From NCBI RefSeq assembly GCF_963853665.1, contig NZ_OY970459.1, positions 1,550,001 through 1,614,000 of the forward strand: DNA of 64,000 nt, in the 5' to 3' direction. The translations under genes were made by a program, and so were the position numbers. Positions within the stretch are counted from its first letter, which is position 1; each line of letters begins with the position of its first letter. The notes under the pieces are model-generated. The model worked only from the letters and a program-made list of their open reading frames with translations, had not been told where the DNA came from and did no database searches. This DNA is from Mycobacterium decipiens. Lineage in GTDB: Bacteria > Actinomycetota > Actinomycetes > Mycobacteriales > Mycobacteriaceae. Shown here one piece after another: positions 52,631-53,239 of the stretch.

Positions 52631-52894
52631 TCAGTCCTTGGCAAAGCAGTACGTCCGGTAGGAGAGCTGCCCACCTTCCAAGTAGCGCGACGGCCGCGGG
52701 CCTTGCGCGCCGATGAATTCGCGGCCAGTGAAGTGCGGCAAGGCCGGAAGATGACGATCGATCAGGTCCCGTGACCGCCGCGAATTGTTCGCGATGCCGC
52801 GTAGCACCTCGGCATTAATCCTTCTGGGAAAGTTGCCGCAGCGACATTGACGAGATCGGCCTCCCATTCGGCGATCCCGTTGCTTGGGGCGCAA
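52631..52894 (-). pseudogene. Relic of phthiotriol/phenolphthiotriol methyltransferase (Rv2952)
   Basis: Only about the last 88 codons of a gene of about 270 remain, split over three frames. One frame reads ALRPKQ. A second reads GIAEWEADLV (Rv2952: DLRPNNEIAAWEADLA). A third gives SLRQLSQ, after which RINAEVLRGIANNSRRSRDL through GGQLSYRTYCFAKD is open to the stop at 52631. The whole SAM-binding half is missing. The intact enzyme O-methylates phthiotriol and phenolphthiotriol to the phthiocerol form, so this step should be lost unless another enzyme does it. Confidence 0.88.
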
Positions 52895-53239
52895 GGCCAT
52901 CCTCGGTATTTGTGTGGTGAACGTGAAGGCAACGAGCCCTCGGGGCCTGACGCGCGCGCTGGAAGCCGTACGCACCGCGGCGTCCAACGCCGGACGTGGC
53001 CCCGTGTCGATGACCCCTCGGCAATGCGCGGCGTGATCACCGGCTGGAATCGCGACGACGCGGAAGAGCGCCGAACTCTGTCATCAGGCCTGGGCGCGCC
53101 ACGGCGTTGAGCACCGATGGGAGCCGACTTCTCGGGTGTGCAGCACATTGGTCCGCAAACCATGGACAAGGAGACGGTCCTGTCATACCCGGCCGTAGTC
53201 CCGCCTGCGTTAATAAAAGAAGTCGTCGTTAGTGGGTAA
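52890..53239 (+). pseudogene. Relic of phthiodiolone/phenolphthiodiolone ketoreductase (Rv2951c)
   Basis: Fragments of the F420-dependent luciferase-like reductase remain in order but in changing frames: RKAILGI, GEREGNEPSG, then (after about 75 missing residues) RALEAVRTAASNAGRGPVSM, AMRGVITGWNRDDAEE, AWARHGVEH, and finally MGADFSGVQHIGPQTMDKE through KEVVVSG ending at TAA 53237-53239. All align with Rv2951c. The first 120 or so residues and the last 55 are gone. Its 5' end abuts the Rv2952 relic back to back, so one deletion removed both 5' halves and the shared promoter region. Confidence 0.88.

What the first reader, a model, noticed from the sequence alone, without database searches (positions are those of the whole stretch)
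52631..53239. One deletion fused the relics of Rv2952 and Rv2951c, predicting a phthiodiolone-type lipid
The last 88 codons of the methyltransferase (minus strand) and scattered fragments of the F420-dependent ketoreductase (plus strand) meet at about 52890-52895. In M. tuberculosis these genes are divergent, so both 5' halves and the promoter region between them were lost together. Later frameshifts split both relics. The two enzymes successively reduce and O-methylate phthiodiolone and phenolphthiodiolone. Their loss predicts that DIM and PGL accumulate in the keto form, as described for M. ulcerans, in an organism whose flanking genes are close to MTBC.
Basis: partly seen in the sequence, partly recalled or inferred. 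Interest (0 to 1): 0.85.

Follow-up and report, generated by a model that had tools for sequence, protein, structure and literature searches.

The report
Lost wax-lipid finishing genes, M. decipiens
A close relative of the tuberculosis bacillus has lost the gene for the next-to-last step in making its virulence waxes, so it should carry the unfinished keto form, although it keeps a spare last-step gene that probably came from another mycobacterium.

Summary
The relics are real. The genome length equals that of Mycobacterium decipiens ATCC TSD-117, described as the nearest non-tuberculous relative of M. tuberculosis. At 52888-52893 the last 88 codons of Rv2952 meet fragments of Rv2951c; relative to M. 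persicum 1086 bp are gone (both 5' parts and the divergent spacer). It was not one event: a second deletion took about 250 bp inside Rv2951c, and its last ~60 codons are replaced by ~507 bp that hold a transposase relic. The other DIM/PGL genes checked are open and under purifying selection.

An intact Rv2952-clade methyltransferase (MT2) lies 0.67 Mb away, 93.8% identical in DNA to a second copy in an M. marinum-like genome, far closer than the locus itself, so horizontal transfer is likely. No Rv2951c orthologue was found; the best other homologue (59%) lies outside that clade. Because reduction precedes methylation, the keto prediction survives, resting on Rv2951c alone. M. uberis and M. 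spongiae lack working copies of both genes too. The lipid form is predicted, not measured. Loss of this step is a known kind of change; the orphan methyltransferase is the fresh part.

The parts
51349..52605 (-). Rv2953 homologue, intact, directly downstream of the Rv2952 relic
   Evidence: 87% protein identity to M. lacus over 418 residues, no stop, w 0.16; name by position (recalled)
52631..52893 (-). Rv2952 methyltransferase relic: last ~88 codons, frame broken
   Evidence: tblastn E 4e-27 and blastn to nine relatives
52888..52893 (.). junction of the fusing deletion (1086 bp missing relative to M. persicum); about six bases fit both sides
52888..52940 (+). Rv2951c ketoreductase fragment 1 (about residues 125-142)
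52941..52955 (.). second deletion: 15 bp in place of 266 bp of Rv2951c in M. persicum
   Evidence: 8 of 9 relatives
52956..53236 (+). Rv2951c fragment 2 (about residues 230-334), with small gaps, stops and frame changes
   Evidence: tblastn E 1e-18; genome-wide hit with 1 TGA and 1 TAA
53237..53742 (.). stretch without homology to the locus, in place of the last ~60 codons of Rv2951c
   Evidence: no match in nine relatives; only itself in the own genome
53280..53468 (-). relic of the first ~95 codons of a DDE transposase gene (PF01609 relative)
   Evidence: tblastn E 2e-6 in a 601-bp stretch; DNA match to G115; Pfam on the G115 gene
53805..55739 (+). fadD29 homologue, open (fatty-acid--AMP ligase family); upstream homology to relatives resumes at 53743
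55736..56389 (+). Rv2949c-like chorismate pyruvate-lyase, open
   Evidence: PF01947
56338..58515 (+). fadD22, open
   Evidence: NF004716 1278.8 bits, cut-off 1228
58493..64000 (+). pks15/1 homologue, open; runs out of the window to G000:C1:1614903 (2136 codons)
   Evidence: 84% to M. lacus over 2109 residues; name by position (recalled)

Best explanation
In Mycobacterium decipiens the two finishing genes of the DIM/PGL pathway were destroyed at their native place: one deletion (1086 bp relative to M. persicum) took the 5' parts of Rv2951c and Rv2952 and the spacer between them, a second took about 250 bp of Rv2951c, and its 3' end was exchanged for a stretch that holds a transposase relic. The rest of the pathway is kept. 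Rv2951c has no orthologue left; Rv2952 has a full-length stand-in, MT2, 0.67 Mb away, probably passed horizontally between this lineage and an M. marinum-like one (direction not shown). The keto group has to be reduced before it can be methylated, so the expected products are phthiodiolone DIM and phenolphthiodiolone-based PGL, with MT2 starved of this substrate or serving another. Shown: the lesions, the open pathway, MT2, and that no Rv2951c orthologue was found. Inferred: the lipid form, MT2's role, the horizontal passage.
For: Relic map. Pathway genes open; nine of nine genes compared have no stop and w 0.10-0.24 against M. lacus. MT2: full length, in the Rv2952 clade 99/97 and paired with the G269 copy 100/100, 93.8% DNA identity over 920 bp with nothing else shared in ~20 kb, dS 0.138 against 0.65-1.00 for seven locus genes of the same two genomes. 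Rv2951c: only relics and a 59% homologue genome-wide, placed outside the clade with p-AU 4e-7. Order of the steps: PMC11030328, passages.
Against: No lipid data. On the M. decipiens branch of MT2 the polarised changes are 6 synonymous and 7 non-synonymous (16 ambiguous), so constraint on MT2 there is not shown. The Rv2952 relic end still has w 0.14-0.27 over 64 codons, so neutral decay is not shown by that measure. The lost spacer may have held promoters, so the pathway could be silent.
Confidence: 0.75

Rival explanations
1. A different luciferase-like F420-dependent reductase (L101:8946-10091) has taken over the ketoreductase step, and with MT2 the strain makes ordinary phthiocerol lipids.
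For: It is full length, 59% identical to M. persicum Rv2951c, and MT2, an enzyme of the next step, is still full length. Both have very near relatives in other mycobacteria (95% in G023; 93% in G269).
Against: It lies outside the Rv2951c clade (p-AU 4e-7), among AMP-binding, condensation, MmpL and P450 genes. In the tree its near relatives come from genomes without an Rv2952-clade methyltransferase hit.
Confidence: 0.1
2. M. decipiens makes little or no DIM/PGL, because the deletion removed the spacer from which Rv2952-Rv2953 and Rv2951c-fadD29 are read in relatives.
For: The spacer is gone and both downstream neighbours point away from it. Whether it holds the promoters was not tested.
Against: fadD29, fadD22, pks15/1 and Rv2953 are open with w 0.16-0.24 against M. 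lacus, and 53743-53900 upstream of and into fadD29 is conserved in nine of nine relatives.
Confidence: 0.12
3. MT2 is not a spare Rv2952 at all but modifies another product, for instance of the NRPS gene next to it.
For: An NRPS-like gene ends about 2 kb upstream and the reductase that should feed MT2 is missing. NF045823 is not specific: a paralogue beside ftsY also passes its cut-off (393 bits against 300).
Against: MT2 sits inside the clade of DIM-locus methyltransferases, and the G269 copy, in other surroundings, has no NRPS gene among the neighbours looked at.
Confidence: 0.3
4. The lesions are assembly or sequencing errors.
For: Only one assembly of the species could be read here.
Against: The genome was closed with PacBio and confirmed with Nanopore (PMC11237670, section 6); several separate lesions, a transposase relic and lower identity than the flanks do not look like read errors.
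Confidence: 0.02

Closest known systems
M. ulcerans, which makes phthiodiolone diphthioceranates (passages of PMC3828164; the genetic cause, a mutated Rv2951c homologue, is recalled)
   Same: Loss of the reductase step predicts keto-form lipids
   Different: Here both native genes are fused by deletion and a transposase relic is present; the M. ulcerans protein nearest to MT2 is itself cut short (230 residues, P0096), in M. decipiens MT2 is full length
M. spongiae FSD4b-SM (G026), for which phthiodiolone products are predicted in print (PMC11361433, section 13)
   Same: No Rv2951c or Rv2952 match of the DIM type
   Different: No relic found in 80 kb around papA5, and fadD29, fadD22 and pks15/1 orthologues are missing too; the paper also says PGL genes are absent
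M. uberis (L001)
   Same: Rv2951c and Rv2952 both broken while Rv2953, fadD29, fadD22 and the 198 residues of pks15/1 on the stretch are open
   Different: Decayed in place by stops and indels, no fusion; two other genes of the stretch also carry stops
M. tuberculosis East Asian/Beijing strains with a point mutation in Rv2952 (passages of PMC3169546)
   Same: The end of the same pathway is altered naturally
   Different: There the second step is weak and phthiotriol builds up; here the first step is gone

Membership tests
Rv2951c phthiodiolone/phenolphthiodiolone ketoreductase | homology of the window fragments to DIM-locus Rv2951c, at the same place in the locus | tested here: met
   tblastn E 1e-18; position between Rv2953/Rv2952 and fadD29
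Rv2951c phthiodiolone/phenolphthiodiolone ketoreductase | an intact reading frame | tested here: not met
   fragments with stops, two deletions' edges and a lost 3' end
Rv2951c phthiodiolone/phenolphthiodiolone ketoreductase | an orthologue elsewhere in the genome (membership of the 59% homologue in the clade) | tested here: not met
   13 DIM-locus rows form a clade 100/99 without it; p-AU 4e-7
Rv2952 phthiotriol/phenolphthiotriol methyltransferase (relic) | an intact reading frame | tested here: not met
   about 88 of 272 codons left, frame broken
Rv2952 phthiotriol/phenolphthiotriol methyltransferase (MT2) | place in the clade of DIM-locus enzymes and full length | tested here: met
   clade 99/97 of 20 of 33 rows; NF045823 440 bits against 469 for M. 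persicum Rv2952
Rv2952 phthiotriol/phenolphthiotriol methyltransferase (MT2) | place in the DIM/PGL locus | tested here: not met
   0.67 Mb away, between IS481 and IS30 transposase genes
Rv2952 phthiotriol/phenolphthiotriol methyltransferase (MT2) | methylates phthiotriol lipids | not testable with these tools
   needs an enzyme assay or lipid data

The most novel reading that the evidence does not exclude
The finishing steps have been rebuilt from outside parts: a horizontally gained methyltransferase (MT2) and an F420 reductase of another clade, both away from the locus and both with 93-95% identical relatives in other mycobacteria, replace the lost native pair or together finish a different lipid.
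Probability: 0.08. Interest if true: 0.75.

Novelty: new member of a known kind. Interest (0 to 1): 0.5.

Why it matters
M. decipiens is described as the closest known non-tuberculous species to M. tuberculosis (PMC11237670, abstract) and is offered as a study model. If its DIM and PGL are keto-form, comparisons of envelope lipids between the two have to allow for it. Losses of the same two genes in M. decipiens, M. uberis and M. spongiae, each with a different anatomy, suggest that the methoxy end of these waxes is dispensable in several lineages; plain lipid analysis can test that.

Tried and rejected
Rejected: a single event (three large lesions). Rejected: both functions lost (MT2). Rejected: the 59% reductase as an Rv2951c orthologue. 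The 62% partial hit at G000:C1:3270719 is a truncated relative of that gene (91% over 214 residues) beside a transposase-like frame.

Set aside: the trees had rows read on the wrong strand, and the tree had three rows in a wrong frame; replace them, and one search leaves out the partial copy. The fadD29 value was a codon slip (redone). In one search the M. marinum values for fadD26 and the M. persicum values for fadD26 and fadD28 compare paralogues, because the orthologues were not on the fetched stretches; I do not use them. The M. lacus 495-codon frame that seemed split here is an over-long drrC frame.

Literature: ten searches. Decipiens with phthiocerol (38) or with phthiodiolone (75) gave one paper each, the M. 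spongiae paper. Decipiens with genome (45) listed 11, of which I opened 5 in part. None of what I saw reports this loss in M. decipiens. The library lacks most subscription papers; Sapriel and Brosch 2019 was not read; no supplementary file could be read.

Full report
Identity. The window is G000:C1:1550001-1614000 of a single-contig genome of 5,303,299 bp. PMC11237670 (section 6) gives exactly this length for Mycobacterium decipiens ATCC TSD-117, closed with PacBio and confirmed with Nanopore. That text has no match for DIM, PGL, phthiocerol, pks15, Rv295 or lipid. G269 is M. marinum or very near it (its MT2 is as like the query as P0001, labelled M. marinum; inference).

The relics. With intact proteins of M. 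persicum and M. leprae the Rv2952 relic lies at 52631-52893 (minus) and Rv2951c fragments at 52888-52940 and 52956-53236 (plus). Against M. persicum the first junction lacks 1086 bp: about 184 codons of Rv2952, 161 bp of spacer and about 124 codons of Rv2951c (start codons as in the mechanical frames). About six bases at 52888-52893 fit both sides. The second junction has 15 bp in place of 266. From 53236 to 53743 nothing matches the locus in nine relatives. Of 148 genomes searched with this stretch, 8 matched, this genome among them; G115 matches in two pieces (80% and 78%), the other six over 40-50 bp. In G115 the match is the start of a gene whose protein has a DDE transposase domain, and tblastn finds it at 53280-53468 minus (E 2e-6). 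Relic DNA is 70-77% like four relatives, Rv2953 83-87%, fadD29 79-83%.

The rest of the pathway. Against M. lacus the locus is collinear from Rv2953 to fadD26. The frames matching fadD29, fadD22, pks15/1, lppX, mmpL7, fadD28, mas, papA5, ppsA-E and fadD26 are open, and drrA, drrB and drrC as well. Nine of nine genes compared in detail have no stop and w 0.10-0.24 against M. lacus; M. lacus against M. marinum gives 0.14-0.35 for seven genes. Gene names follow position and M. tuberculosis usage (recalled), except fadD22 and the Rv2949c-like gene, which a family model names.

Methyltransferase elsewhere. A full-length homologue, 81% to M. persicum Rv2952, lies at G000:C1:930776-931579. Its frame (L100:9223-10098) scores 440 bits for NF045823 (cut-off 300), against 469 for M. 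persicum Rv2952, 466 for the G269 copy between fadD28 and mas, and 393 for a paralogue beside ftsY in this genome, so that model alone is not specific. In a tree of 33 rows it pairs with the second G269 copy (100/100) inside a clade of 20 rows that holds the DIM-locus copies (99/97). The two share 920 bp at 93.8% and nothing else in about 20 kb. Their dS is 0.138; for seven locus genes of the same two genomes it is 0.65-1.00. Horizontal passage is the likely cause; its direction is not shown. Here MT2 lies between an IS481 element with 23-bp inverted ends and an IS30 transposase gene; in G269 an rve-type transposase gene is near. Among 346 genomes of the genus only G000 and G269 have this copy at over 90% identity.

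Reductase elsewhere. The best other homologue is 59% identical. A tree of 30 rows puts the 13 DIM-locus sequences in one clade (100/99) and this one elsewhere; holding it with them is rejected (p-AU 4e-7). Its neighbours are AMP-binding, condensation, MmpL and P450 genes. Fourteen of 346 genomes have a methyltransferase at least 78% identical to MT2. Of the 13 besides G000, 13 have an Rv2951c match of at least 80% (2, 11). G000 is the one of the 14 without it: MT2 is an orphan here.

Meaning. PMC11030328 (passages) states the order: Rv2951c turns phthiodiolone into phthiotriol, Rv2952 then makes phthiocerol. With the first step gone the keto form should build up whether or not MT2 works. Against it or open: no lipid data; on the M. 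decipiens branch of MT2 6 synonymous and 7 non-synonymous changes were polarised (16 ambiguous), which does not show constraint, though the pair as a whole has w 0.25; the 64-codon relic end has w 0.14-0.27; the deletion may have removed promoters of neighbouring genes.

Comparison. M. uberis has both genes broken with Rv2953, fadD29 and fadD22 open; its genome paper (one passage) leaves open whether it makes a phenolic glycolipid. M. spongiae has no DIM-type match for either gene at E 1e-75 genome-wide nor in 80 kb of the locus, and lacks fadD29, fadD22 and pks15/1 orthologues there; its paper predicts phthiodiolone products (section 13). M. ulcerans makes phthiodiolone lipids (passages). Loss of this step is a known kind of change, here placed in M. 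decipiens with an orphan methyltransferase. Searches, and the part of one search that I opened, showed no report of it.

Noticed in passing
L001 (M. uberis) 6276-7047 and 7189-7896: Rv2951c and Rv2952 are pseudogenes with stops while Rv2953, fadD29 and fadD22 beside them are open: a separate loss of the same two steps.
   Followed up: partly
G269:C1:1974263-1974483 and 1993854-1994681: In the M. marinum-like genome the canonical place of Rv2952 holds no methyltransferase gene; one of the same clade lies between fadD28 and mas instead.
   Followed up: partly
L101:8946-10091 (G000:C1:3690945-3692090): The 59% reductase homologue is 95% identical to one in G023, whose papA5 match is only 65%, which hints at horizontal passage of that gene too.
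   Followed up: no
L102:8666-9409 and 9465-10133: A truncated, 91% identical relative of that reductase gene lies beside a transposase-like frame.
   Followed up: no
window 44617-47515: Two tandem glycosyltransferase frames both match the same M. lacus protein (84% and 79%), a likely duplication.
   Followed up: no
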